Source of the DNA: Woeseiaceae bacterium
GTDB lineage: Bacteria > Pseudomonadota > Gammaproteobacteria > Steroidobacterales > Woeseiaceae
Length of the DNA: 32,626 nt
Reading direction: 5' to 3'
NCBI GenBank assembly: GCA_030066625.1
Contig: JASJBG010000008.1
Span: 1-32,626 of the forward strand
The notes under the pieces: generated by a model
Seen by the model: the letters and a program-made list of their open reading frames with translations, nothing else
What the model was told of the DNA's origin: nothing
The model's database searches: none
Shown: positions 7,387 through 25,672 of the stretch, one piece after another
Layout: the number at the start of each line of letters is the position of its first letter
Position numbering within the stretch: the stretch's first letter is position 1
Position numbers and translations under genes: made by a program

Positions 7387-12225
<4,839 letters not shown>

Positions 12226-12468
12226 CGCGTGTCCCCCGATCGGAGCACGAACGCAGCACACTGCGTTCTTGTTGTTATTTTTGGTGCGCGCGCAGGCCTT
12301 CTTTTGCGGGCCTTACGAGAACCCAGTATAGACCAGCAGGCGGGACTTCCGGCACCCCGCATCAGCTTATGTCAAAGCGTTGGTGACAGGGGCGGCCGCT
12401 GATGCAATCGAGGTGCCGAGGGCGCGCTGTTACCGCAACGATTCGGCTTGCGCTACCATCCTTGACCT

Positions 12469-14016
12469 ATGAGGGGACTCCGATTCGCGTTTGCCTTGGC
12501 GGGGATGCTGATGCCGTTCGCTGCCTCGGCCGAAACGCCGCGGTGGCTCGAGTGGATCCGCGACTACGACCTGAACGACTACTCGCTCGGCGTCTCGGTT
12601 TTGACGTCGCAGTCACCGTACGCCAATGCAAAGAACTCCGTGTGGGCGTACCCCTACCTCACCAGCTTCCGGCACTCTTCAATGACCGACGACTGGCTGC
12701 TGTTCCGTGGCGGCGGGATCGGCTTCAGGGGCATAAGCAGCGCCGGCTGGGAATTCGGCCTGTTCGGGCGTATCAACACGGGCGGGCTCGGCAACGGCGA
12801 TCCCGAGGAGCTTCGCGGACTGCGCGAGCGCGAGTGGGCGATCGACGCGGGCCCGTTCGTCGGCTGGCGTGGCTGGCCCGTGCACATCAATCTCGACACC
12901 TACTACGAGATCACCAATCGGCATGACGGTTACAGCGCGGAACTCCGGTTCTCGCTGCCGCGTGAGTACCGCTGGGGGCACCTCGTACCGTCGGTTGAAC
13001 TCGATTACGCGAACGACAGCTTCAACGACTACTACTTTGGCGTATCGCCGGCTGAAGTTCGGCCCGGGCGCCCCGAGTATTTCGCTGGCGCCGACACCAA
13101 CGTGCGAGCGAAGCTCCAATATGGCTACCGACTCGGCGAGAAATGGCTGATATCCGGCAGCGTGTCGGCCGAATGGCTGGGGGACGAAATAACGAGGAGC
13201 CCCATCGTCGACCGCGACCGCGTGCCATCCATCGACGTGGGCCTCGCGTACAACGCCGACATCTTCAACCCGCGCGAGTTTCCGTATCCCGACTACCGCA
13301 GTCCCGCAATCGACCTGCGAATTGGCGGCTTTTGGGATAACGTTTCGACCGAGGCACGCCGGACCGACACCGATGGCATTCCAGGCGACGTCGTCGAGTT
13401 CGAGAACACGCTGGACGGCGCCGACGCCAAGTGGGTCGGCTACGGCGATGTGTTTTTTCGTATCGGCCAGTTCCATCGCTTCGAGCTGAGCTATTTCGAG
13501 CTCGGCCGCGACTCGCGACTGATTGCGTCCGGCGACATCGATTTTGGTGAGCTCGAAATACCCGCCGGCACCGAACTGACGAGCAGGTCCGATTTTTCAT
13601 CGCTCGTGACGGCCTATTCCTATTCGCTCATGAAGGATGCGCAGAAGGAGTTCGGCGTTACCGCGGGGCTGCACTTCACGTCATTCGACACCATCATCGA
13701 GATCGTGGGCGGCGACCGGGAAGAAATCGACGAGGAAGTGACGCTGCCCGTCATCGGTGCGCACGGTTCGGTGGCGCTCGGCGAGCGCATGCGGCTTGCG
13801 GCGCGCCTGCAGATATTCGGCGCAGACGTAAACCGCTACGAGGGCAATATGTACTTCGCGACGCTGGACCTCACGCGGGAATTCTCGGAAAAGCTGCGGC
13901 TCGGGCTCGGGTTCAACTACTATGATATCCGCCTCTCGTCGTCGCGCGAATCATTCCGTGGCGACTTTCAGACACGCCACTTTGGGCCCGTTTTGTTCCT
14001 GAGCGTGGCGCTCTGA
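12469..14016 (+). CDS. MipA/OmpV outer-membrane protein fused to a second beta-barrel
   Basis: 515 residues with signal peptide MRGLRFAFALAGMLMPFAASA. Residues ~25-265 match the MipA/OmpV family (scaffold for murein synthesis): ANAKNSVWAYPYLTSFRH, GGGIGFRGI, the SVSAEWLGDEITRSPIVD segment and the final strand SIDVGLAYNADIF, where a normal ~260-residue MipA would stop. A further ~245 residues with alternating amphipathic strands follow (IDLRIGGFWD, DVFFRIGQFHRFELSYFEL, RLAARLQIFGADV, LRLGLGFNYYDIRL) and end in a hydrophobic strand, LFLSVAL. This looks like a second outer-membrane barrel. There is no stop or frameshift between the halves. The ATG is preceded by no clear Shine-Dalgarno. The ligand or partner is unknown. 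It stands alone, with 84 bp before the next gene. Confidence 0.75.
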   Translation: MRGLRFAFALAGMLMPFAASAETPRWLEWIRDYDLNDYSLGVSVLTSQSPYANAKNSVWAYPYLTSFRHSSMTDDWLLFRGGGIGFRGISSAGWEFGLFGRINTGGLGNGDPEELRGLREREWAIDAGPFVGWRGWPVHINLDTYYEITNRHDGYSAELRFSLPREYRWGHLVPSVELDYANDSFNDYYFGVSPAEVRPGRPEYFAGADTNVRAKLQYGYRLGEKWLISGSVSAEWLGDEITRSPIVDRDRVPSIDVGLAYNADIFNPREFPYPDYRSPAIDLRIGGFWDNVSTEARRTDTDGIPGDVVEFENTLDGADAKWVGYGDVFFRIGQFHRFELSYFELGRDSRLIASGDIDFGELEIPAGTELTSRSDFSSLVTAYSYSLMKDAQKEFGVTAGLHFTSFDTIIEIVGGDREEIDEEVTLPVIGAHGSVALGERMRLAARLQIFGADVNRYEGNMYFATLDLTREFSEKLRLGLGFNYYDIRLSSSRESFRGDFQTRHFGPVLFLSVAL

Positions 14017-14100: not shown

Positions 14101-14961
14101 ATGCGCGTATTGATCGCCACTGCGTTGTTGCTCGCTTTCGCAGCCGCCAACGCGGACAACCATGCCGATACGCTGAAGCGTATTGCCGAGACGGGCGAGT
14201 TCCGCATTGGCTACGTCCCTGACGCGCCGCCGCTGTCGTTCAATGACCGCAACGGCAACGCGGTCGGCTATTCGATCGATCTGTGCCGGCATATCGCTTC
14301 GACAATCCGCGACGATCTCGGTCTGGAGAAGATCGACATAACTTTCACGCCGCTGGTGACAATCGAAGATCGCCTGTCGGCGGTCCAGAACGGCGATGTC
14401 GATATCGAATGCGGAGCGACGACGGTAACCCTGTCGCGCCGCGACCGCGTGGACTTCACGCTGATGACGTTCATTACGGGCAGCGCCGTCCTGTCGCGCA
14501 AAGCTAACCCGATCAACACGGTCGACGACATCGCAGGTGCGAAGATCGCCGTCCTGAGCGGTACGACGACGGAAGACGTCATGCGACGCGTCGTCGAGGT
14601 CAACGGTTTTAACGTCGATCTCGTCATGATCGACTCGCACGACGAGGGCATGCAGCTGCTGAATGACCGCAAGGTGATCGGCTACGCGTCCGATCGCGCG
14701 ATGCTGATTGGCCAGGTGTTCCGCAACGACAATGCCGCCAACCAGTACGCTCTGACTCGCTCCGCGTTGTCGTTTGAGCCGTATGCATTGATGATTCCGC
14801 GCGGCGACACCAACTTCAGGCTGGCCGCTGATCGCGCATTGGCCTCGCTGTATCGTACAGCGCGAATTCGCCGCCTGTACCAGAACTGGTTCGGCCGCTA
14901 CGGCGAGCCGCTGTCGCCCATCGTCGAGGCGATGTACCAGTTCCAGGCCGTCGGCGAATAA
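14101..14961 (+). CDS. Family 3 extracellular solute-binding protein (orphan)
   Basis: Periplasmic binding protein of 286 residues with signal peptide MRVLIATALLLAFAAANA. The mature part shows the family 3 pattern of amino-acid binders: FRIGYVPDAPPLSFNDRNGNAVGYSIDLCRHIA at the front, LVTIEDRLSAVQNGDVDIECGATT, a hinge near KIAVLSGTT, and the C-terminal LYRTARIRRLYQNWFGRYG. AGGAGA upstream of the ATG is a good ribosome site. No ABC permease or ATPase is in the window, so it either serves a transporter elsewhere or has another role (for example a sensor ligand-binding protein). A small six-bp hairpin lies upstream at 14052-14069. Its TAA is immediately followed by the stop codon of the convergent kinase. 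Ligand not predictable. Confidence 0.85.
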   Translation: MRVLIATALLLAFAAANADNHADTLKRIAETGEFRIGYVPDAPPLSFNDRNGNAVGYSIDLCRHIASTIRDDLGLEKIDITFTPLVTIEDRLSAVQNGDVDIECGATTVTLSRRDRVDFTLMTFITGSAVLSRKANPINTVDDIAGAKIAVLSGTTTEDVMRRVVEVNGFNVDLVMIDSHDEGMQLLNDRKVIGYASDRAMLIGQVFRNDNAANQYALTRSALSFEPYALMIPRGDTNFRLAADRALASLYRTARIRRLYQNWFGRYGEPLSPIVEAMYQFQAVGE

Positions 14962-15879
14962 TCAGGACTTGTAGCGGCACGCCGTTACGGCGTGCTCTTC
15001 GTCCAGCGTCAGCACGGCGTCGGCCCTCTTCGGCAGGGCCGCGAGGTTGTGCCGGGTGATGCGTTCGTAAAAGCGAATGAAGCGGGCGACGCCGTCGGCG
15101 TCCATGAGGCCTTTGCCGCGGCCGCCCGAGGCGCTGGCAAGTTTCTGCTCCTGCTCGAGGCGCCAGCGATAGACGGCCTCGAAGCTCGGTGCGGCAAGGA
15201 ACACGAGCGCATCCAGGCGATCGAATATCGGCGCATAGTCGCTTTTTAGCTTCTCGTTGGCGTAGCCGCGCCAGTTACCGTCGGCGTCTTCATCGCGTTC
15301 GAGACCGTTGACGGGCTGCGCTAGCGCGTCGTTTGTCTCCGCCTCGCTGCCCACGCACCAGCCCTCGAGCACGATCATGTCGATCGGGCCGGTGACGACA
15401 GGCCACTCGTGCTCGGGTGCTCGGTCGTCGCTCGCCTTGTCGAAGCGCGGCAGTCGCGCGCGCTCTTCCGTGGCGAGCGCGACAAGGCCGTCAAGCGTCG
15501 TGTCGAGCATCCCCGTGTCGTGCGTACCCGGAACACCGCGCGTCTCGAGCAGCGGGTGCACAGACGTCGCGAGTGACCGGCGCTCGGCGAGGGTCAGGTA
15601 GAAATCATCGATCGACAACACAGCCGACCGCCACCCGAACAGGCTTGCGGCCGCGATATCGAGAAAATCCGCGAGCGTCGATTTGCCGGTTCCTTGCGCA
15701 CCGTTGATACCGAGTAGCAGGGTTTCGTCACCTTCTCGGAACGATGGCAGCCGCGCCGCAAGCGGCAGGTAGAAACTGGTTGCCGTATCGCGGAATGCTT
15801 CGGGCAGCCGGTGCCTTACGAGGAATCCCTCGAGGTCCTCTGCGGGGATTTCGGTGCTTGTGTCGGGCGGTTTCGGCAT
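14962..15879 (-). CDS. D-glycerate kinase (P-loop, plant GLYK/Tda10-like)
   Basis: 305-residue P-loop kinase. Seen: Walker A in LLLGINGAQGTGKSTLADFL, Walker B-like VLSIDDFYLT, the LETRGVPGTHDTGML motif characteristic of the D-glycerate 3-kinase/Tda10 group, VLEGWCVG, and the NEKLKSDYAPIF region. Known plant members phosphorylate D-glycerate to 3-phosphoglycerate. The assignment here rests on that family and on the neighbouring locus, whose phosphorylase and GH63 enzymes are both predicted to release D-glycerate. It is divergent from the ROK regulator across about 50 bp and convergent with the solute-binding protein (stop codons abutting). An uncharacterised P-loop kinase of the same fold acting on another small acid is the alternative. 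Confidence 0.75.
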   Translation of the reverse strand: MPKPPDTSTEIPAEDLEGFLVRHRLPEAFRDTATSFYLPLAARLPSFREGDETLLLGINGAQGTGKSTLADFLDIAAASLFGWRSAVLSIDDFYLTLAERRSLATSVHPLLETRGVPGTHDTGMLDTTLDGLVALATEERARLPRFDKASDDRAPEHEWPVVTGPIDMIVLEGWCVGSEAETNDALAQPVNGLERDEDADGNWRGYANEKLKSDYAPIFDRLDALVFLAAPSFEAVYRWRLEQEQKLASASGGRGKGLMDADGVARFIRFYERITRHNLAALPKRADAVLTLDEEHAVTACRYKS

Positions 15880-15888
15880 GGTTCACGT

Positions 15889-15918
15889 TTGTCGCGACGG
15901 CGACGCCGCTGCTAGCAT
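15889..15918 (+). promoter_or_regulatory. Possible promoter of the ROK regulator
   Basis: TTGTCG at 15889-15894 and TAGCAT at 15913-15918 with an 18-bp spacer give four of six matches each to the -35 and -10 consensus. Transcription would begin near 15925, leaving almost no leader before the ATG at 15929 and placing the ATG at 15917 inside the -10 box. Weak, pattern-based call. Confidence 0.3.
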
Positions 15919-15928
15919 GCGGGTCGCA

Positions 15929-17119
15929 ATGGCGCAAAGCAATAACCAGAGCGTCGTCCAAACGACACCCGAAAGCTGGGATCCCGTGACGTCGCGCTAC
16001 TTCCGCAGCGACCGGTTCGCACCGAATACCGAGGCGGAACGGGCAGTGCTCGGCCTGATCCTGCGCCGCGGCCCGATGACCCAGATCCAGATCGCGCGTG
16101 AAATCGACCGTTCCCAGCAAACGGTCTCGCGGCTGCTGTCGCGCCTGATCGAGCGCGGTTCCTTGCGCCAGGGCGAGCGTGTGTCGAGCGGCAAGCGCGG
16201 CCAGCTCAGCATCAACGTCGAGATCGTTCCGGACTACGCTTACACCTTCGGCATCGGCATCCTGTGGGACGCGCTGTCCGTGACGTTGATGGACTTCTCC
16301 GGGCGCATCATTGACAGGCGCATGACGCCAATGATGACGATGACGCACGACAACGTCGTCGCCGAGCTTCGTCGGATCATTGACGAACTCATAAGCCAGT
16401 GGGGCATCGACGAGACTCACGTGTTCGGTGCCGGTGTTGGCATCCCGGGTCCGTTCATGCTCGCGACCGGCCAGATCAATACGCCATTGACACTCGAGGA
16501 GTGGGCGAACATCAACGTAGAGGCCGTGCTCGCCAACGACCTCGAGCTTCCCGTCTGGGTGGAGAACGACGGCAATGCGGCCGCGATCGGCGAGAGCCTG
16601 TTCGGCGTCGGTCGCTGGGCCAGCGACTTCGTCTACGTGTATATCGCGACCGGCGTCGGCGGCGGCATTGTCCACGCCGGCGAGCTGGTGCGCGGCGCGG
16701 TCGGCAACGCGGGTGAGATCGGCCAGCTGCTGCCACCGAACATGTATCCGCACCCGAACCTCGAACTGCTGCGCAAGATCATCTGCAAGCACGGCGTCGA
16801 CGTGCCGAGCGTGACCGACCTGGTGCTGAACTTCGACGAGAACTGGCCGGGCGTTGACGAGTGGATCGCCCGGGTTCGTGACTCGATGACCCTGATCGCG
16901 TCCGCGTCGGCCGCGCTGCTCGACCCCGAAGTCATCGTGATCGGCGGTCGAATTCCACGGCCGCTGGCGGAACGGATGATCCCGCACGTCGAGATTTATG
17001 ACCATCGGCGCCGGTCCTTCGCGCGGCCGCTGCCGCGCATCGTCGTCGCGGAGGTGGAGGGTGACGCGGCCGCGATGGGCGCCGCCGCGCTGTCGTTCAA
17101 CAAGTATTTCTTCCGCTGA
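15929..17119 (+). CDS. ROK-family transcriptional regulator
   Basis: Sugar-responsive repressor of about 396 residues. An N-terminal winged helix (AERAVLGLILRRGPMTQIQIAREIDRSQQTVSRLLSRLIERG) precedes a ROK sugar-kinase-like domain with FGAGVGIPGPF, WVENDGNAAAIGES (sugar-binding Glu-Asn-Asp) and YIATGVGGGIV. The usual zinc motif (CxCGxxGCxE) after the conserved GNAGEIG is absent; it reads GNAGEIGQLLPPNMYP instead. Start candidates are 15854, 15917 and 15929. The first overlaps the divergent kinase, and the putative promoter favours 15929. It lies directly upstream of the TonB receptor in the same direction, with palindromic half-sites between them, so it likely controls the receptor and the glycoside enzymes downstream. 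Likely effector: hexose or glucosyl/mannosyl-glycerate (inference). Confidence 0.88.
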   Translation: MAQSNNQSVVQTTPESWDPVTSRYFRSDRFAPNTEAERAVLGLILRRGPMTQIQIAREIDRSQQTVSRLLSRLIERGSLRQGERVSSGKRGQLSINVEIVPDYAYTFGIGILWDALSVTLMDFSGRIIDRRMTPMMTMTHDNVVAELRRIIDELISQWGIDETHVFGAGVGIPGPFMLATGQINTPLTLEEWANINVEAVLANDLELPVWVENDGNAAAIGESLFGVGRWASDFVYVYIATGVGGGIVHAGELVRGAVGNAGEIGQLLPPNMYPHPNLELLRKIICKHGVDVPSVTDLVLNFDENWPGVDEWIARVRDSMTLIASASAALLDPEVIVIGGRIPRPLAERMIPHVEIYDHRRRSFARPLPRIVVAEVEGDAAAMGAAALSFNKYFFR

Positions 17120-17140
17120 ACGCTCGTTGAAGCGGCCTGC

Positions 17141-17211
17141 ATTTATGCATCCATCATGCGTAAATAAGGGCGTTTACCTATACAGATAGCGCTAGTTATT
17201 TACGCACGATG
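17141..17211. promoter_or_regulatory. Putative operator array (three half-sites) before the TonB receptor
   Basis: Three copies of a 10-bp element occur here: ATGCATAAAT (minus strand, 17141-17150), ATGCGTAAAT (plus strand, 17156-17165) and GTGCGTAAAT (minus strand, 17198-17207). The first two form a 10-5-10 palindrome with nine of ten pairs. The second and third form an inverted repeat, perfect over 11 bp (17157-17167 with 17196-17206) and 15 of 16 when extended. The third copy sits directly upstream of AT-rich -10-like hexamers (TATATT at 17214, TATTAT at 17216), a position where a bound repressor would block transcription. The nearest regulator gene is the ROK protein just upstream. Binding is inferred, not shown. 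Confidence 0.6.
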
Positions 17212-17252
17212 AGTATATTATTCTGTTAAGCCGGGGGATCGGGCCGGCCGCA

Positions 17253-17302
17253 GAATGCCCGTTTCCTCCCAGGCGACGCCCGTGGAATGCCTTTGGGCAT
17301 TC
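17253..17302 (+). promoter_or_regulatory. Leader with two alternative hairpins before the TonB receptor
   Basis: GAATGCCC (17253-17260) and GAATGCC (17285-17291) can each pair with the single GGGCATTC at 17295-17302. The near pair gives a seven-bp stem with a four-base loop; the far pair gives eight bp with a 34-base loop. They cannot form together. The segment lies in the presumed untranslated leader, some 45 bases before the ATG. It could affect translation or RNA stability, or be coincidence. Confidence 0.35.
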
Positions 17303-17346
17303 GCGCATCCGCGGGTCCTGAAATCTGTATAAACGGGGGAAAATCC

Positions 17347-19833
17347 ATGACTTTTCGCAAATCAGTGTGGCTGGTGCCGTTCGCCTGCCTCGCGTTGCCG
17401 GCGTTGGCGCAGGACGACATCGACGAAGAATCGATCGAGGAGATCGTCGTCACCGGTACCGGTATCGCTCGTACCGGATTCGAGACGCCGCAGTCGGTCA
17501 TCCAGTATTCGGAAGAGGACATTCGTTCGTTCACCTCATCCAGCCAGGCCGACATCCTGACCCAGATCCCGGGTATCTCCGCCGAAGGCGGTGGCGGTGA
17601 GGTCGCAACCAACGTCTTCCATCGTGCGCTGCCCTCGGGTGGCCAGTTCTCGTTCACGCCGCTCCTGTATGACGGCATGCCGTCGTTCACGACCTTCGGC
17701 CTGAATTCGTCCGCGTTCGACGTCTACTACCGCAACGACCTCGGCATCGAGCGTTCGGAATTCGTTTCCGGCGGTGTCTCGAACCTGTTCGGACCGGGCT
17801 CGGTCGCGGGTATCGTCAACTACATCTCGAAGACCGGCGGACCCGACAACACCGGTACGCTGCAATTCGAAGCGGCCGAAGAGGGTCGCTTCCGCGGTGA
17901 CTACTTCTTCAGCGGCCCGCTGGGCGGCGAGATGTCGGATACCTACTACGCATTGTCCGGCTACTATCGGCAGGACGAAGGCCCGCTGAAATCCGGCCTC
18001 GACACGCAGGGTTTCCAGATACGCGGCAACATCAAGCACAACTTCTCCGACGGCTCAGGCTCGGTCACGGTCTACGGCCAGGCGATCGACGACAGCGTCC
18101 AGTTCTTCCTGCCGCTGCCCGTCGATGGCAACTCTCGTGAGCGCGTCAACGGCAACAACGGCGAGGAAGTGTTCACGATGAACACGGTCGATGCCATCGG
18201 ACTGTCCTACGATACGCCGGACGGCCGCTTCATGACGCCGATCGGCGACGGTGTCGTCACCAAGGGGCAGATGATCGCTGCGGTTCTCGACAAGGACCTG
18301 AACGACGACTGGACGTTGAACGCGAAAGTCCGCTATGCACGCTACGACCACCAGTTCAACCTGTTCCTCGACGGTGACGCACTCGGGCCGAATACGCCCG
18401 AGACCCAGACCGAGTACCTGACCAACCGCGGCATCGACCCGGCCTTCCAGACGGGCGCGCAGTTCACGTACGTGCAGTCAGGCCAGGCGCTTGCCGCCAG
18501 CGACCTGCTGTTCGGCAACAGGACGCTCGACCGCTGGCGTGATGCGACCGACTTCTCCTCGGAGATCAGTGTCGGCCGCAACTTTTCGACGGGTAACGCG
18601 GAGCACACGCTGACAATCGGCGCGTTCTTCTCGAACTCGCAGGCCGATGACCTGAACTACATCACGACCTACCTCGGCGACTTCCGCAATGCGCCGATGC
18701 TGGTCGACGTGACCCTGACGGGTGTCCAAGAGGACGATACGGGCAACCTGGTGGCTGCGGCCGATCCGAATGCGACGTTCAACTGGACGCTCAACGGCCT
18801 CGCGGCATCCAACGGCCTCGTTGGCTATCGCGACCGCAGCGCACGGCGCACGGCGTTTTACGTCGCCGACCAGATGGAGTTCGACCGCTGGTCGTTCGAC
18901 GTCGGAGCGCGTGTCGAGCGCCTTGATGGCGACGTCAAGCAGTTCAACACGGCGTCCTTCGTGATGAGCAGCGACAACTCGGTCAACAATGCGATCGAGA
19001 CGGTCAGTTTCACCGACGGCTCGCTGACGAGTGACTCGCTGAGCGCCACCGAGTGGGCGGTTTCGGCGGGCACGCTGTTCCGTGCTACCGACAACATCAA
19101 CGTGTTCCTGAACGCGTCGCGGGGCTTCTTCTTCCCGCAGATTCGCAGTGTTCCGTTCAACCAGGGCCGGCTCGCGTCGTACGAGGGCGAGATCATTGAT
19201 ACGGTCGAGGCTGGCGTGAAGTTCGAGAACGACACTTTCTCTGCGAACGCGCTGTTGTTCTGGACGACGCTCGACGATCGGCGCAACGTTGACTTCATCA
19301 ATGACCCGAACAACCCGGGCAACATCATCGAGGAAGTCACGCTGCAGTCGACCGAGGCGTTCGGTATCGAGGCAAGCGGTACATGGTTCGTCAACGACTA
19401 CTTCTCGCTGAACGGCAACATCACGCTGCGTGATCACGAGTTCACCAAGTCGGAAGGCAACCCTGGCATCGTCGGCAACGAGCTGCGTCGCCAGCCGACC
19501 GAAATGGCGAACCTGGGAGCGCGCTTCAACTACAACAACTTTGATGCAGCACTGTTCTATAACTTCCACGGCGATAACTTCGCCAACGATTCGAACACTG
19601 TGAAACTCGACTCGTACAGCCTGCTCCGACTCGAAGCCGGTTACACCTTCGACTTCGACAACGGGCAGCTGATTCGAGTCAGCCTGCACGTCTTCAACCT
19701 GACGGACGAGCAGGGCATCACCGAAGGCTCGCCGCGACAGGGCAACGCTCAGTCCGGACAGCCCGCTCAGTTCTTCGTCGGTCGGCCTATCCTCCCCCGT
19801 AGGTCGATGCTCAGAGTCACCTACGACTTCTAG
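17347..19833 (+). CDS. TonB-dependent outer-membrane receptor of the glycoside locus
   Basis: 828 residues. Signal peptide MTFRKSVWLVPFACLALPALAQ, TonB box within EEIVVTGTG, plug domain (SVIQYSEEDIRSFTSSSQADILTQIPGI; NLFGPGSVAGIVNYISKTGG), then a long 22-strand-type barrel ending in SMLRVTYDF with the C-terminal Phe typical of outer-membrane proteins. GGGGGA six bases upstream fixes the start at 17347; the longer reading to 17287 has no signal peptide at its N-terminus. It imports a substrate across the outer membrane using TonB energy. Its place between a ROK repressor and sugar-phosphorylase, symporter and GH63 genes points to a carbohydrate or sugar-acid glycoside rather than a siderophore. 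A hairpin follows the stop. Confidence 0.92.
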   Translation: MTFRKSVWLVPFACLALPALAQDDIDEESIEEIVVTGTGIARTGFETPQSVIQYSEEDIRSFTSSSQADILTQIPGISAEGGGGEVATNVFHRALPSGGQFSFTPLLYDGMPSFTTFGLNSSAFDVYYRNDLGIERSEFVSGGVSNLFGPGSVAGIVNYISKTGGPDNTGTLQFEAAEEGRFRGDYFFSGPLGGEMSDTYYALSGYYRQDEGPLKSGLDTQGFQIRGNIKHNFSDGSGSVTVYGQAIDDSVQFFLPLPVDGNSRERVNGNNGEEVFTMNTVDAIGLSYDTPDGRFMTPIGDGVVTKGQMIAAVLDKDLNDDWTLNAKVRYARYDHQFNLFLDGDALGPNTPETQTEYLTNRGIDPAFQTGAQFTYVQSGQALAASDLLFGNRTLDRWRDATDFSSEISVGRNFSTGNAEHTLTIGAFFSNSQADDLNYITTYLGDFRNAPMLVDVTLTGVQEDDTGNLVAAADPNATFNWTLNGLAASNGLVGYRDRSARRTAFYVADQMEFDRWSFDVGARVERLDGDVKQFNTASFVMSSDNSVNNAIETVSFTDGSLTSDSLSATEWAVSAGTLFRATDNINVFLNASRGFFFPQIRSVPFNQGRLASYEGEIIDTVEAGVKFENDTFSANALLFWTTLDDRRNVDFINDPNNPGNIIEEVTLQSTEAFGIEASGTWFVNDYFSLNGNITLRDHEFTKSEGNPGIVGNELRRQPTEMANLGARFNYNNFDAALFYNFHGDNFANDSNTVKLDSYSLLRLEAGYTFDFDNGQLIRVSLHVFNLTDEQGITEGSPRQGNAQSGQPAQFFVGRPILPRRSMLRVTYDF

Positions 19834-19848
19834 CAGCACGTGGAACAA

Positions 19849-19877
19849 CAGGGGCGCCTTATAGGCGCCCCTGTCTT
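19849..19877 (+). terminator. Hairpin terminator/attenuator after the TonB receptor
   Basis: CAGGGGCGCCT and AGGCGCCCCTG pair perfectly as an 11-bp, very GC-rich stem around a three-base loop (TAT), followed by TCTTT. It starts 15 bp after the receptor stop. The T-tract is short, so it may act as a partial terminator or as a 3' stabiliser that lets the receptor message accumulate over the enzyme genes downstream. Confidence 0.75.
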
Positions 19878-19919
19878 TGCCCTCGGGAGCAGCCTCCAAA
19901 GGCAAGAGAGGCGACTCAC

Positions 19920-21641
19920 ATGCGCGCGTTTGCGACCTACGACGCTATGATTCTTCATCTGCGATCGCTGTATGGTGAAACGGCGGCCGACGAGGTCGTG
20001 CGTGCGATCGAGTCACTGCTGGTGAAGTACCTCGGGACGAGTGGCAGCGGCTCGGGCGAGCCGGCACTCGATCATCGCGATGTGCTCCTGATCACCTACG
20101 GCGATACATTCAATGACGGTGAGTCGCCGCCGCTCAAGGTGCTGCACCGGTTCCATTCAGAGCATTTGCAGGGCGTTTTTGAACTCGTTCATATCCTGCC
20201 GTTCCATCCGTATTCCTCCGATGACGGCTTTTCCGTCATCGACTACTACGCGGTGCGCGAGGATCTCGGCAGCTGGGACGATATCGCCAGCCTGTCCGCG
20301 GATTGCCGGATCATGGCCGACGCGGTCATCAATCACATGTCGAGCGAGTCACCCTGGTTCCGGGATTTTCTTGCCGGGGACGAGGACCGGTCGGGCTTCT
20401 TCACGGAGGCCGACCCGGAGGCGGACCTGAGTGCCGTCGTCCGGCCGCGCACTTCGCCGCTCCTGACTCGCTTCGAAGATGCGGCGGGTGAGGATCGATT
20501 CGTCTGGACGACTTTCTCGGCGGACCAGGTCGACCTGAATTACCGCAACCCGGCGGTACTGGTGGCCATGATCGAGGTGCTGTACTTCCTGATATCGAAA
20601 GGTGCGAGGCTGCTTCGCCTCGACGCCGTTACCTTCCTGTGGAAGGAGCCCGGTACCTCATCGGCGAATCTCGAAGAGACGCACCGGCTCATCAAGATTA
20701 TGCGTGCGGCCATCGGGATGCTGCGCGACGACGTCGTTATCATCACCGAAACGAACGTGCCGCATCACGAGAACGTCGCCTACTTCGGTGACGGCCGCGA
20801 TGAAGCGCAAATGGTCTACAACTTTGCGCTGCCGCCGCTCATCGCCCACAGTTTCATCCGCGGCAACTCGGAGCGGCTGAGTGACTGGGCGCGGGAGCTG
20901 TCGCTGCCGGGCGATGATGTGTGTTTTCTGAATTTCTCCGCGAGTCACGATGGCGTTGGCGTCCGGCCGGTCGAGCAGATCCTGGACGAGGCGGAACAGC
21001 AGGCGCTCGTCGATGCGGCGACGGCCGCGAACGGGCTCGTTTCGTCACGACGGCTTAGCGACGGTCGTGAGCGGCCGTATGAACTCAACTGTACCTTCCT
21101 GGACCTGATCTCGCGCCCCGGTGACGAAGTCGACGTGCTCGTTGACCGCTTCGTGGCCTCGCAGGCGATCGTACTCGCCATGCCCGGCGTGCCGGCGATC
21201 TATGTCCAGTCTCTTCTGGGCACGCGCAACGACCTGGCCAGGGTAGAACAGACGGGCAGGGCGCGAAGCATCAATCGCTCCAAGCACGAGTACGCATCAA
21301 TCACGTCGAAGATACTGGACCGCGAAACCCGGCAGGGCAGGGTATTCGACCGCCTTACGCGGATGATTCGCGTGCGCCGTGTTCACGCGGCCTTCGACCC
21401 ATACGCGCCGTTCGAGATTGTCGATTTCGGGCACGAGGTATTCGCACTGACGCGCGGCGCTGACGAGCAGGCCATCACCTGTATAACAAACCTCACCGAT
21501 CGTGGTGTCACGATCGACATAACCGCGGAGCGCGTTGGCGAGGAACTGCTTTCCTCGACGACCATCGCGGCGGGACAGCATACTCTGCCAGCCTTTGCGG
21601 TCTGGTGGCTGCGGCACGGTAAGACCCAGGGAGCACTATGA
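19920..21641 (+). CDS. GH13_18 sugar phosphorylase, probably glucosylglycerate phosphorylase
   Basis: 573-residue alpha-retaining phosphorylase of the sucrose phosphorylase subfamily. Visible: ILPFHPYSSDDGFSVIDYY, ADAVINHMS, the nucleophile Asp235 in LLRLDAVTFLWKE, the acid/base Glu277 in ITETNVPHHENVAYFG, and Asp344 in FSASHDGVGVRP. The TETNVPH form recalls the glucosylglycerate/glucosylglycerol phosphorylase branch more than true sucrose phosphorylases (recalled from family knowledge, not aligned). Predicted reaction: 2-O-glucosylglycerate + phosphate to alpha-glucose 1-phosphate + D-glycerate, which fits the glycerate kinase and GH63 genes nearby. GAGAGG upstream supports the ATG at 19920. 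Its stop overlaps the symporter start (ATGA), so it is translationally coupled. Sucrose or glucosylglycerol are alternative substrates. Cytoplasmic. Confidence 0.8.
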   Translation: MRAFATYDAMILHLRSLYGETAADEVVRAIESLLVKYLGTSGSGSGEPALDHRDVLLITYGDTFNDGESPPLKVLHRFHSEHLQGVFELVHILPFHPYSSDDGFSVIDYYAVREDLGSWDDIASLSADCRIMADAVINHMSSESPWFRDFLAGDEDRSGFFTEADPEADLSAVVRPRTSPLLTRFEDAAGEDRFVWTTFSADQVDLNYRNPAVLVAMIEVLYFLISKGARLLRLDAVTFLWKEPGTSSANLEETHRLIKIMRAAIGMLRDDVVIITETNVPHHENVAYFGDGRDEAQMVYNFALPPLIAHSFIRGNSERLSDWARELSLPGDDVCFLNFSASHDGVGVRPVEQILDEAEQQALVDAATAANGLVSSRRLSDGRERPYELNCTFLDLISRPGDEVDVLVDRFVASQAIVLAMPGVPAIYVQSLLGTRNDLARVEQTGRARSINRSKHEYASITSKILDRETRQGRVFDRLTRMIRVRRVHAAFDPYAPFEIVDFGHEVFALTRGADEQAITCITNLTDRGVTIDITAERVGEELLSSTTIAAGQHTLPAFAVWWLRHGKTQGAL

Positions 21642-23215
21642 ACACTTTTGACTACGCAATTGTCGTTGGCTACCTCGGCGTACTGCTCGGGCTAGGCTAC
21701 TTTTTCAAGGAGCAGAACTCGAAGACCGACTATTTTCTCGGTGGTCGCGAGATGGGCGTGTTTCCGCTGACGCTGTCGACGATGGCGACGCAGCTGTCGG
21801 CCATCAGCTTTATCTCGGCGCCCGCTTTTGTCGGTCTCCGCGAAGGCGGCGGTATGGTCTGGCTGTCTTACGAATTCGGCGTGCCGCTCGCCATGCTGTT
21901 CCTGATGGTCTACGTGCTACCTGCGCTTTACCGCTCGGGCGTCGTCAGCATCTACGACTACCTGGAACGCCGCTTCGGCATGTCCACGAGGCTCGTAATC
22001 AGCGTCGTGTTCCAGGTGAGCCGAGCGTTCGCCACGGGCGTGACGATTTACGCAACGGCGCTCATCCTGGACAGCGTCATGGGCATCCCGTTTTATCCGG
22101 CAATAAGCATCATCGGCGTAATTACGATCATCTACTCGCTGCAGGGTGGCATGAAGGCCGTGGTCTGGTCGGACACGATCCAGATGATCCTGATCTTCTT
22201 CGGCGTGCTTATGGTCGGCGGCTACGCACTTGTAAATCTCGGCGGCGTCGATGCATTTCTTGCCAACGTCGATACGCAGCGGCTGGAGGTGTTGCGAACG
22301 GATTCGCTGGGCTTTTCGGGCGATGAGTGGGGACTGTTGCCGATGATATTCGGCGGCTTCGTGCTGTACGCATCGTACTACGGCTGCGACCAGACACAGG
22401 CGCAGCGGACGCTGTCCGCGAAGAGCGAGCAGACGGTGCGCCACATCCTGCTTGCAAACGGTTTGGCGCGCTTCCCGATCGTTTTCCTGTACTGCACGGC
22501 CGGTCTGATACTCGGAACTTTCGTTACGATGACGCCCGAGTTTATGGCGAAGATCCCGCCGGACCGGCCGGATACGATGGTGCCGCTGTTCATCGTCAAC
22601 TACCTGCCGCACGGCATCATTGGGATCCTCGTCGTTGCGCTGCTCGCCGCCGCGATGTCATCGCTGAGTTCCGTCGTCAATTCGCTGTCGGCGGTTTCAC
22701 TCGAGGATTACCTGCGGCTCACCGGAAGGGAGCTGGAGCAGAAGACCTACGTATTCTGGTCGCGGGTAACGGTCTTCGTCTGGGGCATTATCATTGTGGT
22801 CACGTCGATCTTCGCCGGCGACATCGCGCCGACCGTGATCGAGGCGATCAACAAAATTGGTTCGGTATTCTATGGCCCGATCCTTGCGATCTTCCTGCTC
22901 GCGATTCTTTTCAACAAGGTACACGCAACCGGGGCGAATATTGGCCTCCTGACCGGCGTTGGCGTCAACGTCTACCTGTGGCTGTTCCAGCCGCAGATCT
23001 TCTGGCTCTGGTGGAATTTCATTGGTTGTGTGGTGACGATGACGGTTGCGCTCGTTATTTCGGCGATTCGCCACGAGGAGTCGACGGCGCCGCCCGGCCT
23101 CGACCAGGGAGTCGGCCACTGGTACAAGGGTGAGACGATCGTGCTGGTTGGCGCCTTCGTCGGTATGCTCATCGTCGGCGCGCTCGTACCCGTCATCTTT
23201 GGCAGCGGCCAATAG
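21638..23215 (+). CDS. Sodium:solute symporter (SSS family)
   Basis: Inner-membrane transporter of 525 residues with about 13-14 hydrophobic segments. Family features: FDYAIVVGYLGVLLGLGYFF in the first helix, KTDYFLGGREMG (the conserved YFLGGR loop), SAISFISAPAFVG, and ALLAAAMSSLSSVVNSLSAV in the sodium-site helix with its Ser residues. The start overlaps the phosphorylase stop by four bases (ATGA), which means tight coupling. It likely carries the intact glycoside (glucosylglycerate or mannosylglycerate) from the periplasm into the cytoplasm, where the phosphorylase and GH63 enzymes act. This is inferred from the operon; SSS proteins transport sugars, amino acids and acids and the sequence alone does not tell which. 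Confidence 0.9.
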   Translation: MNTFDYAIVVGYLGVLLGLGYFFKEQNSKTDYFLGGREMGVFPLTLSTMATQLSAISFISAPAFVGLREGGGMVWLSYEFGVPLAMLFLMVYVLPALYRSGVVSIYDYLERRFGMSTRLVISVVFQVSRAFATGVTIYATALILDSVMGIPFYPAISIIGVITIIYSLQGGMKAVVWSDTIQMILIFFGVLMVGGYALVNLGGVDAFLANVDTQRLEVLRTDSLGFSGDEWGLLPMIFGGFVLYASYYGCDQTQAQRTLSAKSEQTVRHILLANGLARFPIVFLYCTAGLILGTFVTMTPEFMAKIPPDRPDTMVPLFIVNYLPHGIIGILVVALLAAAMSSLSSVVNSLSAVSLEDYLRLTGRELEQKTYVFWSRVTVFVWGIIIVVTSIFAGDIAPTVIEAINKIGSVFYGPILAIFLLAILFNKVHATGANIGLLTGVGVNVYLWLFQPQIFWLWWNFIGCVVTMTVALVISAIRHEESTAPPGLDQGVGHWYKGETIVLVGAFVGMLIVGALVPVIFGSGQ

Positions 23216-23226
23216 AGTCGACGCGC

Positions 23227-24399
23227 GTGAACAAGTTCCGCGACGCAGATTTTCTGGCGGGTCACATCCGCGACACGCTGCGTTTCTACGACGCCAACGT
23301 GATCGATCCGTCGGGTGGCTTTCGGCAGAACTACTACGACGACGGTTCGACCTTCGACGATGCGTCGAAACACCTCGTCAGCAGTTGTCGTATGGTCTTC
23401 AACTATTGCCAGGCACACCGGCTGTTCGGCGGGGACCGGTACAAGGCGCTGATGGATACGGGCGCTGCATTCGTGCGCGGCACACACTGGCAGCCGGAGC
23501 GGCCGGGCTACGTCTGGACGCTGGCGGCCGATGGCAACGACGAGACCAATCACTGCTACGGCCTCGCGTTCGTCGTACTCATGTATTCGGCGCTGCTCGA
23601 GCGCGGTGACGCCGATGCCGGGCAGGATATGAACACCGCCTGGTCGATCATGGAAGAACGTTTTTGGCTACCGGACGCTGGCCTGTATGCCGATGAAGCA
23701 ACCCCGGACTGGAGCAGCGTGTCCGGCTACCGGGGCCAGAATGCGAACATGCACGCCTGCGAAGCGGCGATCTTCGCTTACGAAGCGAGTGGCGACGAGC
23801 GCTTTCTCGATCGGGCGCTGGAGCTGGCCGACACTGTCGCCGTTCGCCAGGCGGGGAGGTCAGACGGGCTGGTCTGGGAACACTTCCGCGCAGATATGGA
23901 AATCGACTGGGACTACAACCGTGACGACCCGGCCAATCTCTACCGACCCTGGGGCTATCAGCCGGGCCACCAGACCGAGTGGACCAAGCTGCTGCTGCTG
24001 CTGCATCGGCATCGACCGGCAGACTGGATGCTGACGCGCGCCGCTGAGTTGTTCGACCGGGCTGTCGATGTTGCGTGGGATGCGGAGCGGGGTGGCCTGT
24101 ACTACGGCTTCGATCCCGACGGCAATATCTGCGACGACGACAAGTACTTCTGGGTGCAGGCCGAGTCCATCGCGGCGGCGGCGCTGTTAGCCGTAGCAAC
24201 CGGCGACGCGCGCTACTGGGACTGGTACGACCGCCTGTGGTCCTACTGTTGGGAGCACCTCGTGGATCACGAGCACGGCGCCTGGTATCGCGTGCTGTCG
24301 GCGGATAACGAGAAGCTGAGCCGGGAGAAGAGCGTTGCCGGCGCGAAGTGTGACTATCACAACCTGAGTGCCTGCATCACGGCACTCGATTGCGTCTGA
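23227..24399 (+). CDS. AGE-family sugar isomerase/epimerase, probably mannose isomerase (YihS-like)
   Basis: 390-residue (alpha/alpha)6-barrel enzyme of the N-acylglucosamine 2-epimerase family. Key motifs and positions: Arg55 in VSSCRMVFNY, His176 in QNANMHACEA, GHQTEW with His248 and Glu251, KYFWVQAESIAAA, and His378 in KCDYHNLSAC. These match, in motif and almost in number, the active-site residues recalled for E. coli YihS, which interconverts mannose, fructose and glucose. In this operon it would convert mannose freed from mannosylglycerate to fructose. It begins with GTG at 23227, 11 bases after the symporter stop; no good ATG is near. Cellobiose 2-epimerase is less likely given the gene context. 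Cytoplasmic, no signal peptide. Confidence 0.83.
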   Translation: MNKFRDADFLAGHIRDTLRFYDANVIDPSGGFRQNYYDDGSTFDDASKHLVSSCRMVFNYCQAHRLFGGDRYKALMDTGAAFVRGTHWQPERPGYVWTLAADGNDETNHCYGLAFVVLMYSALLERGDADAGQDMNTAWSIMEERFWLPDAGLYADEATPDWSSVSGYRGQNANMHACEAAIFAYEASGDERFLDRALELADTVAVRQAGRSDGLVWEHFRADMEIDWDYNRDDPANLYRPWGYQPGHQTEWTKLLLLLHRHRPADWMLTRAAELFDRAVDVAWDAERGGLYYGFDPDGNICDDDKYFWVQAESIAAAALLAVATGDARYWDWYDRLWSYCWEHLVDHEHGAWYRVLSADNEKLSREKSVAGAKCDYHNLSACITALDCV

Positions 24400-24412
24400 C
24401 GCGGAGATGGAG

Positions 24413-25672
24413 ATGATCGACGTCGAGGCAGCTCGCAAAGTGCTGCGAGCCAATGACCGGGGTGGCCATACCGTGCCGACTGACGGTCTCTACCCGTTTG
24501 CTTGGAGCTGGGACTCCGCCATCACGGCACTCGGCTGGCTTACGTTTGACGAGGCGCGGGCCTGGGACGAGTGCCACACGATGTTCAGCGGCCAGTGGGA
24601 CAACGGCATGGTGCCGCACATCCTGTTTCATGGCGGCAATGCGGAATCGTATTTTCCCGGCCCCGACGTCTGGGGCAGCAACACCGCCATTCCTTCCAGC
24701 GCGATCTCGCAGCCGCCGGTCTGGGCGACGGCAATTCGAATGATGGCGGAGCGCGCACAGGACCGCGCGCTGGCTGAATCGGCGCTCGCAAAGCTGATGC
24801 CGCAGCTGATTGCCTATCACGACTGGTGGTACAACGACCGCGACCGGGCCGATACAGGCCTTGTGCGCAGCTATCACCCGTGGGAATCGGGCATGGACAA
24901 CAGCCCGGCGTGGGATACGCCGCTCATGCGCGTACCCGAGGTCGAGTGGGAGTACCAGCGCCGTGATCTCGGCCACGTCGACCAGGACCAGCGTCCGCAC
25001 AAGCCCGAGTACGACCGATACCTGTACCTCGTGGACTTCTACAAGAAGAACGGCTTCGACAGCGACATCATCTATAACGAGTGCCCGTATCGCGTCGTCG
25101 ACATCGGCATCGTGGCCATCCTGCAGCGAGCGACCAAAGACCTCGTAGTGCTTTGTCGCCAGACAGGACATCATGCCGCGGCGGAGCGGATGGAGGGCGA
25201 GATCGATCGCACGCAGTCGGCGATCGACAAACTCTGGTCGCCAGGGCATCGCTGCTTCTTCAACTACGACCTAGTCGCGGACGAGCCGCTCGAGGAAGTG
25301 ACGACGGGCACGGTGCTGCCGCTCTTCGGCGGTCTCGCGGGTGAACAACAGGCAGCCGATATGGCCAAGCTGCTCGACGAATGGATTGACGCTAGCCCGT
25401 TCGCCGTCGCCTCGACGCACCCGTCGAGCCCGAGATACGAGCCGCAGCGCTACTGGCGCGGCCCTATCTGGTTGCACATCAACTGGATGCTGGCCCTGGG
25501 ACTGCGGGACTACGGTTACGATGACGTCGCCGACCGCGTCAATGGCGCAACCCGCGCCTGCGTCGATGCGTCCGGTTTTTTCGAGTACTTTGACGCGGAG
25601 TCAGGCGCCGGCTGCGGCGGCGGCGATTTTTCGTGGACGGCGGCGGTCGCGCTCTACTGGCTGGCCGACTGA
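24413..25672 (+). CDS. GH63 glycoside hydrolase, probably mannosylglycerate/glucosylglycerate hydrolase
   Basis: 419 residues from the ATG at 24413, chosen because GGAG (24403-24406) lies six bases upstream; ATG 24407 and GTG 24368 (overlapping the isomerase) are in-frame alternatives. The (alpha/alpha)6 fold of bacterial GH63 is suggested by PFAWSWDSA near the N-terminus, SYHPWESGMDNSPAWD with the likely acid Asp162, the YWRGPIWLHINWM segment, and FFEYFDAESG with the likely base Glu391. Length and motifs resemble the glucosylglycerate hydrolase of Mycobacterium hassiacum and the Thermus mannosylglycerate hydrolase (recalled, not aligned). Predicted to split the glycoside into hexose and D-glycerate in the cytoplasm. 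It is the last gene of the operon, 13 bp after the isomerase. Mannosyl versus glucosyl preference is undecided. Confidence 0.8.
   Translation: MIDVEAARKVLRANDRGGHTVPTDGLYPFAWSWDSAITALGWLTFDEARAWDECHTMFSGQWDNGMVPHILFHGGNAESYFPGPDVWGSNTAIPSSAISQPPVWATAIRMMAERAQDRALAESALAKLMPQLIAYHDWWYNDRDRADTGLVRSYHPWESGMDNSPAWDTPLMRVPEVEWEYQRRDLGHVDQDQRPHKPEYDRYLYLVDFYKKNGFDSDIIYNECPYRVVDIGIVAILQRATKDLVVLCRQTGHHAAAERMEGEIDRTQSAIDKLWSPGHRCFFNYDLVADEPLEEVTTGTVLPLFGGLAGEQQAADMAKLLDEWIDASPFAVASTHPSSPRYEPQRYWRGPIWLHINWMLALGLRDYGYDDVADRVNGATRACVDASGFFEYFDAESGAGCGGGDFSWTAAVALYWLAD

What the first reader, a model, noticed from the sequence alone, without database searches (positions are those of the whole stretch)
14962..25672. 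Complete predicted glucosylglycerate/mannosylglycerate uptake and catabolism locus
Seen: a D-glycerate-kinase-like gene, ROK regulator, TonB receptor, GH13_18 phosphorylase, SSS symporter (ATGA overlap), AGE isomerase and GH63 hydrolase in one block. Known: GH13_18 includes glucosylglycerate phosphorylase, bacterial GH63 includes mannosylglycerate and glucosylglycerate hydrolases, and D-glycerate 3-kinases share the TRGVPGTHD motif. Inferred: these form one pathway from extracellular compatible solute to 3-phosphoglycerate and sugar phosphate, letting the organism feed on osmolytes released by other microbes or algae. A full outer-membrane-to-glycolysis set of this kind in a gammaproteobacterium is, to my knowledge, not a standard described operon.
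Basis: partly seen in the sequence, partly recalled or inferred. Interest (0 to 1): 0.78.

Follow-up and report, generated by a model that had tools for sequence, protein, structure and literature searches.

The report
Osmolyte-eating gene block in marine bacteria
This stretch of DNA most likely lets a sea-floor bacterium import and eat glucosylglycerate and mannosylglycerate, salt-protection compounds made by other microbes and algae, using a gene set whose parts are known but whose combination I did not find described.

Summary
The block is real and the reading largely holds. The window lies in a Woeseiaceae-family MAG. The GH13_18 protein carries both published glucosylglycerate-phosphorylase signatures and is 45% identical to E. 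coli YcjM. The GH63 protein keeps the cited catalytic and glycerate-binding residues and is nearest to Thermus mannosylglycerate hydrolase. AGE is of the mannose-isomerase type; the kinase is nearest to D-glycerate 3-kinases. Six of 106 other family genomes carry the same core. Eight carry a sister form with another GH63, AGE, usually a non-homologous glycerate 2-kinase and often a fructokinase-like gene; this swap strongly implies glycerate release inside. Ten genomes carry a separate GpgS locus with a second GGaP; the window genome has no GpgS match, so import beats recycling. I add a predicted operator, a perfect 11-bp inverted repeat with a 28-bp spacer, found once in the assembly. Weak points: no fructokinase in the block, AGE missing from three of seven carriers, one import-type locus elsewhere holding a turnover-type GGaP, no biochemistry. 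Digeneaside catabolism is already credited to flavobacteria, so this is a new variant of a known kind, with a predicted glycosylglycerate symporter clade.

The parts
14962..15879 (-). D-glycerate 3-kinase-like gene (GLYK), divergent from the rest
   Evidence: PDB best hits 6ckg and 7xpc, both D-glycerate 3-kinases, E 1.1e-22 and 1.5e-21; no Pfam family; adjacent to the block in 7 of 7 genomes with GH13_18 of this type
15917..17119 (+). ROK-family repressor-like regulator (ATG at 15917 or 15929; longest ORF from 15854)
   Evidence: PF00480 plus winged-helix MarR_2 and MarR hits; NagC and Mlc models match far below cut-off
17157..17206 (.). Predicted operator TGCGTAAATAA-N28-TTATTTACGCA, perfect 11-bp inverted repeat upstream of the TonB receptor
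   Evidence: No match in 100 shuffles of the window with the 10-bp half-sites at up to 3 mismatches; only such site in the 3.88 Mb assembly at up to 3 mismatches; 28- or 29-bp spacing kept in 15 of 16 scanned loci with an orthologous ROK gene
17347..19833 (+). TonB-dependent outer-membrane receptor (ATG 17347; longest ORF from 17287)
   Evidence: PF00593 and PF07715; 73-76% identical in 5 of 6 sister loci of this type, 41% in the sixth
19920..21641 (+). GH13_18 predicted 2-O-glucosylglycerate phosphorylase
   Evidence: TETN acid/base loop, PYELN loop A, 45% identity to E. coli YcjM over 516 aa
21638..23215 (+). SSS (sodium:solute symporter) family transporter, predicted alpha-glycosylglycerate importer, ATGA overlap with the phosphorylase gene
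   Evidence: PF00474; relatives at 45% identity or more share a stretch with GH63 or GH13_18 in 29 of 33 loci outside the family
23227..24399 (+). AGE-superfamily predicted D-mannose isomerase
   Evidence: PF07221; 417 bits to 5x32, the Marinomonas mannose isomerase; three histidines kept in 20 of 20 aligned ORFs, 13 of them distinct
24407..25672 (+). GH63 predicted mannosylglycerate/glucosylglycerate hydrolase (ATG 24407; longest ORF from 24368)
   Evidence: PF22422 MGH1-like; 388 bits to the Thermus enzyme 2z07/4wva and 200-208 bits to the mycobacterial one; active-site residues kept

Best explanation
The block is a ROK-controlled route for eating external alpha-glycosyl-glycerates. The TonB receptor brings the anionic solute into the periplasm and the SSS symporter takes it intact into the cytoplasm with sodium. 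Glucosylglycerate is split by the GH13_18 enzyme with phosphate into glucose 1-phosphate and D-glycerate. Mannosylglycerate (and possibly some glucosylglycerate) is hydrolysed by the GH63 enzyme to a free hexose and D-glycerate, and the AGE enzyme turns mannose into fructose. The GLYK kinase makes 3-phosphoglycerate. The regulator binds the paired inverted repeat at 17157-17206 and is released by the solute or a breakdown product. Shown: the genes, their families, active-site signatures, conservation, kinase replacement and operator-like sequence. Inferred: substrates, transport direction, regulation, and the fructokinase step.
For: GGaP signatures in the window and in 22 of 22 other GH13_18 proteins compared, YcjM included (rows chosen at E 1e-40 or better to the window protein, YcjM added). 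GH63 residues equivalent to Tyr36, Trp40, Trp42, Asp43, Tyr88, Gln115, Gly180, Asp182, Arg216, Tyr222, Tyr375, Trp376 and Glu419 of the mycobacterial enzyme are all kept; the Gln434 position is Phe as in the Thermus enzyme (my reading of the alignments, chain numbering shifted by two; residue roles). AGE keeps three histidines (criterion). The glycerate-handling enzyme is swapped at the locus: GLYK in this form, a DUF4147/MOFRL protein in 6 of 7 searched sister-form loci (best NCBIfam matches are glycerate 2-kinases, below cut-off), and in Pseudohongiella L051 a gene beside the regulator whose best match, below cut-off, is tartronate semialdehyde reductase. PfkB fructokinase-like genes lie next to AGE in some relatives. 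No GpgS match at E 1e-15 in the window genome or in 5 of 7 genomes with this block (the window's included), whereas a second GH13_18 type and GpgS occur in exactly the same 10 of 107 genomes, at shared loci, and the two Woeseiaceae types form separate clades.
Against: No activity, growth or transport data. AGE is missing from G044, G050 and G101, so mannose-to-fructose is not an obligatory step. No fructokinase in the window block. GLYK is found in 38 of 107 family genomes, mostly away from this block, and in none of the 8 sister-form genomes. The phosphorylase of the import-type locus L085 (Thalassotalea) groups with the turnover clade, not the import clade (a long branch, flagged as unsure), so clade and role do not map one to one. 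Four loci with 45% or more SSS identity lack GH63 and GH13_18, one of them cut by its contig end. Several family-model scores are below their curated cut-offs. Why both a phosphorylase and a hydrolase are kept is not proved. The assembly is 89.5% complete, so the absence of GpgS could be a gap.
Confidence: 0.82

Rival explanations
1. Recycling of the cell's own osmolyte: the bacterium makes glucosylglycerate under salt or nitrogen stress and the block recovers leaked solute and breaks down the internal pool.
For: Ten family genomes carry a GpgS-GGaP synthesis and turnover locus, a phosphatase gene visible in 9 and an adjoining GLYK in 5; two of them (G051, G103) also have the import block. L085's phosphorylase groups with the turnover clade.
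Against: The window genome and 4 of the other 6 genomes with this block have no GpgS match at E 1e-15. The NF010496 model gave only matches far below cut-off in the window genome (best 45.9 of 262 bits; the model also gives matches in all 14 control genomes, over cut-off in one). The seven import-block GGaPs form their own clade.
Confidence: 0.08
2. Import of the solutes as osmoprotectants first and food only second.
For: SSS transporters for osmoprotectants are well known (recalled); the solutes are compatible solutes.
Against: Catabolic enzymes lie in the same gene run with overlapping or nearly touching genes; a sugar-type ROK regulator; glycerate-handling enzymes conserved by function.
Confidence: 0.06
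3. The true substrate is another alpha-glucoside or alpha-mannoside, such as sucrose, glucosylglycerol, or the larger mannosylglucosylglycerate.
For: TIGR03852 sucrose phosphorylase is the top NCBIfam hit and glucosylglycerol and sucrose phosphorylases are the best solved relatives; mannosylglucosylglycerate exists in a marine planctomycete (start of the abstract of PMC3694870).
Against: Loop A and acid/base motifs are those of GGaP and not those published for sucrose phosphorylase, sucrose-phosphate phosphorylase or glucosylglycerol phosphorylase; glycerate kinases would have no role for sucrose or glucosylglycerol.
Confidence: 0.06
4. Only glucosylglycerate is eaten; GH63 acts as a second glucosylglycerate hydrolase and AGE is a side gene.
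For: AGE is absent from 3 of 7 genomes with this block; the characterised mycobacterial GH63 acts on both GG and MG.
Against: The sister form lacks GH13_18 in the locus but has AGE in 8 of 8 loci and PfkB in 5 of 7 searched, which fits mannose, not glucose; the nearest characterised GH63 is the Thermus mannosylglycerate hydrolase.
Confidence: 0.15

Closest known systems
Glucosylglycerate phosphorylase (GH13_18; Meiothermus silvanus, Spirochaeta thermophila, E. coli YcjM)
   Same: Both signature motifs, conserved catalytic regions, glycerate kinase neighbour (PMC7178133 sections read)
   Different: The review reports frequent neighbours for glycerate kinase and for synthesis of the solute, and E. 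coli has a putative ABC transporter beside it; here the gene overlaps an SSS symporter gene and follows a TonB receptor
Mannosylglycerate hydrolase (Thermus MgH) and mycobacterial glucosylglycerate hydrolase (GH63)
   Same: Fold family, catalytic pair, glycerate-binding residues
   Different: Here linked to import rather than, as with the mycobacterial enzyme, to use of the cell's own pool after nitrogen starvation
Digeneaside (mannosylglycerate, equivalence recalled) catabolism of Zobellia/Maribacter flavobacteria
   Same: Same predicted food; five Bacteroidota contigs in my scan place a 33-35% GH63 directly before the SSS gene (L073, L075, L077, L090, L092)
   Different: The original description (Barbeyron 2016) is not held, so its gene content could not be compared; those five contigs showed no GH13_18, GLYK, GckA or ROK regulator match
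Shewanella sucrose utilisation (outer-membrane receptor + permease + phosphorylase + kinase + regulator)
   Same: General layout (passages of PMC2996990)
   Different: Different substrate, transporter family and regulator family
AGE-type D-mannose isomerase (Marinomonas 5x32, Pseudomonas geniculata)
   Same: 417 bits to 5x32; three conserved histidines
   Different: Genomic role next to a GH63 hydrolase

Membership tests
GH13_18 glucosylglycerate phosphorylase | (T/S)ETN motif in the acid/base loop | tested here: met
   TETN in the window protein and YcjM (criterion PMC7178133)
GH13_18 glucosylglycerate phosphorylase | Glu instead of Gln in loop A | tested here: met
   RPYELN in the window, SPYEIN in YcjM
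GH13_18 glucosylglycerate phosphorylase | Activity on 2-O-glucosylglycerate, none on sucrose | not testable with these tools
   Needs enzyme assay
Sucrose phosphorylase | N(L/V)D(I/L/V)YQ loop A and NCBIfam equivalog cut-off | tested here: not met
   Loop A is PYELN; TIGR03852 at 181.8 of 334.4 bits
GH63 mannosylglycerate/glucosylglycerate hydrolase | Catalytic Asp and Glu and the glycerate-contacting Tyr36, Trp40, Tyr88, Arg216, Tyr375 | tested here: met
   Conserved in the alignments (read by eye) and; roles from PMC6608630
Mycobacterial glucosylglycerate hydrolase equivalog | NCBIfam NF047898 cut-off | tested here: not met
   325 of 550 bits; the nearest solved relative is the Thermus enzyme, so MGH-like rather than a GgH equivalog
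AGE D-mannose isomerase (YihS type) | Three catalytic histidines | tested here: met
   NANMH, QPGHQ, KCDYH kept, with small changes around the His, in 20 of 20 ORFs aligned, 13 distinct, and the His matched in 5x32; taken as the trio described for P. geniculata by order and rough spacing, that protein itself not aligned
AGE D-mannose isomerase (YihS type) | NCBIfam NF051846 cut-off | tested here: not met
   217.7 of 600 bits; closer to the solved Marinomonas enzyme
D-glycerate 3-kinase (GLYK) | Similarity over most of the length to a solved member | tested here: met
   6ckg E 1.1e-22 over residues 53-271 of 305, 7xpc E 1.5e-21
D-glycerate 3-kinase (GLYK) | 3-phosphoglycerate as product | not testable with these tools
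   Needs assay
ROK-type transcriptional regulator | N-terminal winged helix plus ROK domain | tested here: met
   PF12802/PF01047 at 60-107 and PF00480 at 139-295
Sodium:solute symporter family | PF00474 / TIGR00813 over cut-off | tested here: met
   170.1 bits (cut-off 22.8) and 235.8 bits (cut-off 184)

The most novel reading that the evidence does not exclude
The SSS symporter, with a TonB receptor in the Proteobacteria, forms a previously unrecognised importer for alpha-glycosyl-D-glycerates in general, with members in Gammaproteobacteria, Alphaproteobacteria, Bacteroidota and Marinimicrobia. Different bacteria attach interchangeable enzymes to it (GH13_18 phosphorylase, GH63 hydrolase, or both; up to three unrelated glycerate-handling enzymes), and in many of the Gammaproteobacteria a ROK repressor reads an unusual operator of two inverted 11-bp half-sites 28 bp apart. 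This would make glycerate-glycoside osmolytes a shared marine carbon currency between phototrophs and heterotrophs.
Probability: 0.55. Interest if true: 0.62.

Novelty: new variant of a known kind. Interest (0 to 1): 0.52.

Why it matters
Glucosylglycerate and mannosylglycerate are stress solutes of marine cyanobacteria and red algae (recalled; in part from passages and reference titles), yet the review of GH13_18 says that the function of GGaP is not experimentally confirmed and that plenty of organisms not believed to accumulate the solute carry it. An import block that carries GGaP in genomes without a GpgS match gives a direct, testable answer: there it is a food enzyme. It also predicts a specific transporter clade that could be used to trace this carbon flow in metagenomes.

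Tried and rejected
Sucrose phosphorylase assignment rejected on motifs and cut-off. Own-osmolyte recycling tested by searching GpgS with the NCBIfam model NF010496 (three weak matches, none over cut-off) and then with a family GpgS protein (none in the window genome). The upstream MipA (12469-14016) and solute-binding protein (14101-14961) genes were considered as parts; neither matched in the 14 sister stretches fetched. A search for near palindromes of 16-20 bp found nothing consistent; a motif search by expectation-maximisation led to the paired half-sites scored. Promoter- and terminator-like sites were within the spread of shuffles (1 against a mean of 2.2; 10 against a mean of 7.6, sd 3.7). 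The fructokinase was sought in the own genome: best a 39% PfkB at the end of another contig, with no block gene beside it. Literature (9 searches): glucosylglycerate+TonB gave 3 papers, of which I saw passages of one (PMC5507952) and the listing of two; mannosylglycerate+carbon source+operon+transport gave 28 papers, 15 listed, none opened; Woeseia/compatible solute/glucosylglycer (two of three terms) gave 276, 15 listed, passages of one seen for this question (PMC13410759). Barbeyron 2016 and Franceus 2017 are not held. Structure prediction was not used.
Full report
What is there. The likely starts of three are further in than the longest ORFs: ROK at 15917 or 15929, TonB receptor at 17347, GH63 at 24407. 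The window is contig C233 of an 89.5% complete, 3.88 Mb assembly. Most relatives in the same family that I read are titled Woeseiaceae or Woeseia in public records of the same contigs. The organism therefore belongs to, or is close to, this family of Gammaproteobacteria.

Phosphorylase. Franceus and Desmet's review (PMC7178133, sections 2 and 4.2 read) gives two marks of glucosylglycerate phosphorylase: (T/S)ETN in the acid/base loop and Glu in loop A. The window protein has TETN and PYELN and is 45% identical over 516 residues to E. coli YcjM, annotated as glucosylglycerate phosphorylase. All 22 other GH13_18 proteins compared, YcjM included, keep both marks; apart from YcjM they were chosen by similarity to the window protein at E 1e-40 or better. 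It is below the sucrose phosphorylase cut-off, although glucosylglycerol and sucrose phosphorylases are the nearest solved structures.

Hydrolase. The nearest solved relative is the Thermus enzyme TTHA0978 (2z07, 4wva-c), 388 bits, against 200-208 bits for the mycobacterial glucosylglycerate hydrolase entries. Read by eye in those alignments, the window keeps the catalytic Asp and Glu and the residues that hold glycerate in the mycobacterial complexes (roles from passages of PMC6608630). At the Gln434 position it has Phe like the Thermus enzyme. The motifs around these residues are largely kept in 46 homologous ORFs, 39 of them distinct; single changes occur, for example Ala for Tyr after the catalytic Glu in the sister form.

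AGE enzyme and kinase. AGE is closest to 3gt5 and 5x32. The latter is the Marinomonas D-mannose isomerase (passage of PMC7762179), and three histidines are kept. The kinase has no Pfam match but is nearest to solved D-glycerate 3-kinases.

Sister loci. Of 107 family genomes, 15 including the window have the GH63 gene. I read the other 14. Six have the window's form: GLYK, ROK, TonB receptor, GH13_18 at 63-66%, SSS at 80-87%, GH63 at 64-68% and on the other strand; three of these six also have AGE, two an intact PfkB kinase and one a PfkB fragment. The other eight have a second form with GH63 at about 40% and AGE in all eight, without GH13_18 or GLYK at the locus. An SSS at 57-62% is seen in seven of the eight and the receptor in six; L031 and L037 are cut by contig ends. 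Seven of the eight were searched for the extra kinases through the same public contigs: six have a DUF4147/MOFRL protein and five a PfkB gene. Pfam matches for the examples tested are over cut-off; the best NCBIfam matches, glycerate 2-kinase and fructokinase, are under cut-off. So two unrelated glycerate kinases serve related importers. This is the strongest argument that glycerate is released inside the cell.

Co-occurrence. Over 107 genomes GH63 and SSS coincide in 14 (15 and 15 carriers, 2.1 expected). The one GH63 genome without SSS, G085, has its contig cut there; the one SSS genome without GH63, G069, has a 43% SSS. GH63 and AGE coincide in 12 (2.24 expected); all 7 carriers of this GH13_18 type have GLYK and GH63, and none of the 8 sister-form genomes has GLYK. 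Related genomes are not independent, so the p-values are indicative. GLYK occurs in 38 genomes and AGE in 4 genomes without GH63, so neither is specific to the block. AGE is missing from G044, G050 and G101, which speaks against mannose isomerisation as a fixed step.

Synthesis versus feeding. Ten family genomes carry a second GH13_18 (38-44% identical to the window's), and exactly the same ten carry a GpgS homologue. At these loci the order is phosphatase (seen in nine; the tenth contig begins inside GpgS), GpgS, GH13_18, and an adjoining GLYK in five, not in three, and undecidable in two cut contigs. Family models support glucosyl-3-phosphoglycerate synthase (355 bits to NF040724, below its 700-bit cut-off) and the mannosyl-3-phosphoglycerate phosphatase family. 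These look like synthesis and turnover loci. The window genome and four of the six sister genomes with the same block have no GpgS match at E 1e-15. In the tree the seven import-block phosphorylases and the ten turnover ones are separate clades, each with 100/100 support (drawn with a midpoint root, long branches flagged for YcjM, L070, L081 and L085). One result goes the other way: the phosphorylase of the import-type locus L085 falls with the turnover clade, so clade and role do not match everywhere. On balance feeding on outside solute is favoured over recycling for the window.

Spread of the importer. One scan of the species-genome collection with the SSS alignment, using two short peptide patterns, gave 53 loci; relatives without these peptides would be missed. 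Thirteen are the family contigs above. Of the other 40, 30 have GH63 or GH13_18 in the stretch: 29 of 33 at 45% SSS identity or more, and 1 of 7 below. A glycerate kinase (GLYK or the MOFRL type) was found in 13 of the 40. Misses at 45% or more are L060, L062, L083 and L091; L091 is cut by its contig end, and L083 has the MOFRL-type kinase, a GH125-like gene and a fructokinase-like gene. GH63 was counted at any identity with E up to 1e-6, so some are distant; the distant one in L047 is an MGH1-like protein by Pfam. A Thalassotalea MAG (L085) has AGE, a more distant ROK gene, GH13_18, GLYK, TonB receptor, SSS and GH63 together. In Pseudohongiella (L051) the gene beside the regulator best matches 2-hydroxy-3-oxopropionate reductase (207 bits, under its 341-bit cut-off), perhaps a third glycerate-handling family. 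Kordiimonas laminariae 5E331 (L054), titled as a strain, offers a testable relative.

Regulation. Between regulator and receptor lies TGCGTAAATAA-N28-TTATTTACGCA at 17157-17206, a perfect inverted repeat. No match occurs in 100 shuffles of the window, and it is the only such site in the assembly at up to 3 mismatches. The half-site pair, with up to 4 mismatches in all, recurs with a 28- or 29-bp spacer in 15 of 16 scanned loci with an orthologous ROK gene (L025 missed) and in 0 of 17 scanned loci without one (orthology; some loci are close relatives). The motif was derived from these loci, so presence is partly circular; the constant spacing and the absence elsewhere are not. It is a predicted operator.

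Prior art. Full-text searches found GGaP reviews and enzyme papers (listing; passages), digeneaside degradation credited to Zobellia and Maribacter (passages), and GGaP motifs noted in a red-alga isolate (passage of PMC10608839). A Prochlorococcus paper proposes uptake of glucosylglycerate as a carbon source through a putative transporter (passages of PMC11631117). Glucosylglycerate+TonB gave 3 papers; the one opened, by passages, does not describe such a locus there. The library is open-licence only, and the Zobellia paper could not be read, so I cannot exclude that a similar operon is in print. That digeneaside is mannosylglycerate is recalled. I therefore rate this a new variant of a known kind.

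Noticed in passing
window 9341-9564, inside ORF 7387-12261(-): About 15 tandem copies of a 15-bp unit encoding an APDEF-type pentapeptide repeat in a 1624-aa protein with HYR and bacterial-surface Ig-like domains.
   Followed up: partly
window 11314-11401, same ORF: A GTC trinucleotide run encoding poly-aspartate tracts.
   Followed up: no
L100-L106, L108-L110: Glucosylglycerate synthesis/turnover loci (GpgS, second GGaP, mostly a phosphatase, in five an adjoining GLYK) in 10 of 107 family genomes, exactly the carriers of the second GH13_18 type.
   Followed up: yes
L045:13090-13233: A 48-residue PfkB-like fragment where some relatives have fructokinase and AGE; possibly a relic of a lost mannose branch.
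   Followed up: no
L047:8259-10004 and similar place in L048-L050, L054: In these alphaproteobacterial loci a protein with weak GH63 similarity lies directly before the SSS gene; in L047 it is 581 aa with a C-terminal MGH1-like domain. L047, L050 and L054 also hold a second, ordinary GH63 several kilobases away.
   Followed up: partly
L083:5021-14160: Sessilibacter corallicola: TonB receptor, SSS, MOFRL-type glycerate kinase, mannose-6-phosphate isomerase-like cupin, ROK kinase and a GH125-like protein, but no GH63 or GH13_18 match; possibly a different mannosylglycerate-cleaving enzyme.
   Followed up: partly
upstream of the TonB receptor in L030, L032, L034, L035: A different conserved element (about TAATACTCATTATAGGTTGTAT) in the sister form, perhaps the operator of its more distant ROK regulator.
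   Followed up: no
window 29592-30488(+): A protein joining a guanylate/adenylate cyclase catalytic domain with an FHA domain.
   Followed up: no
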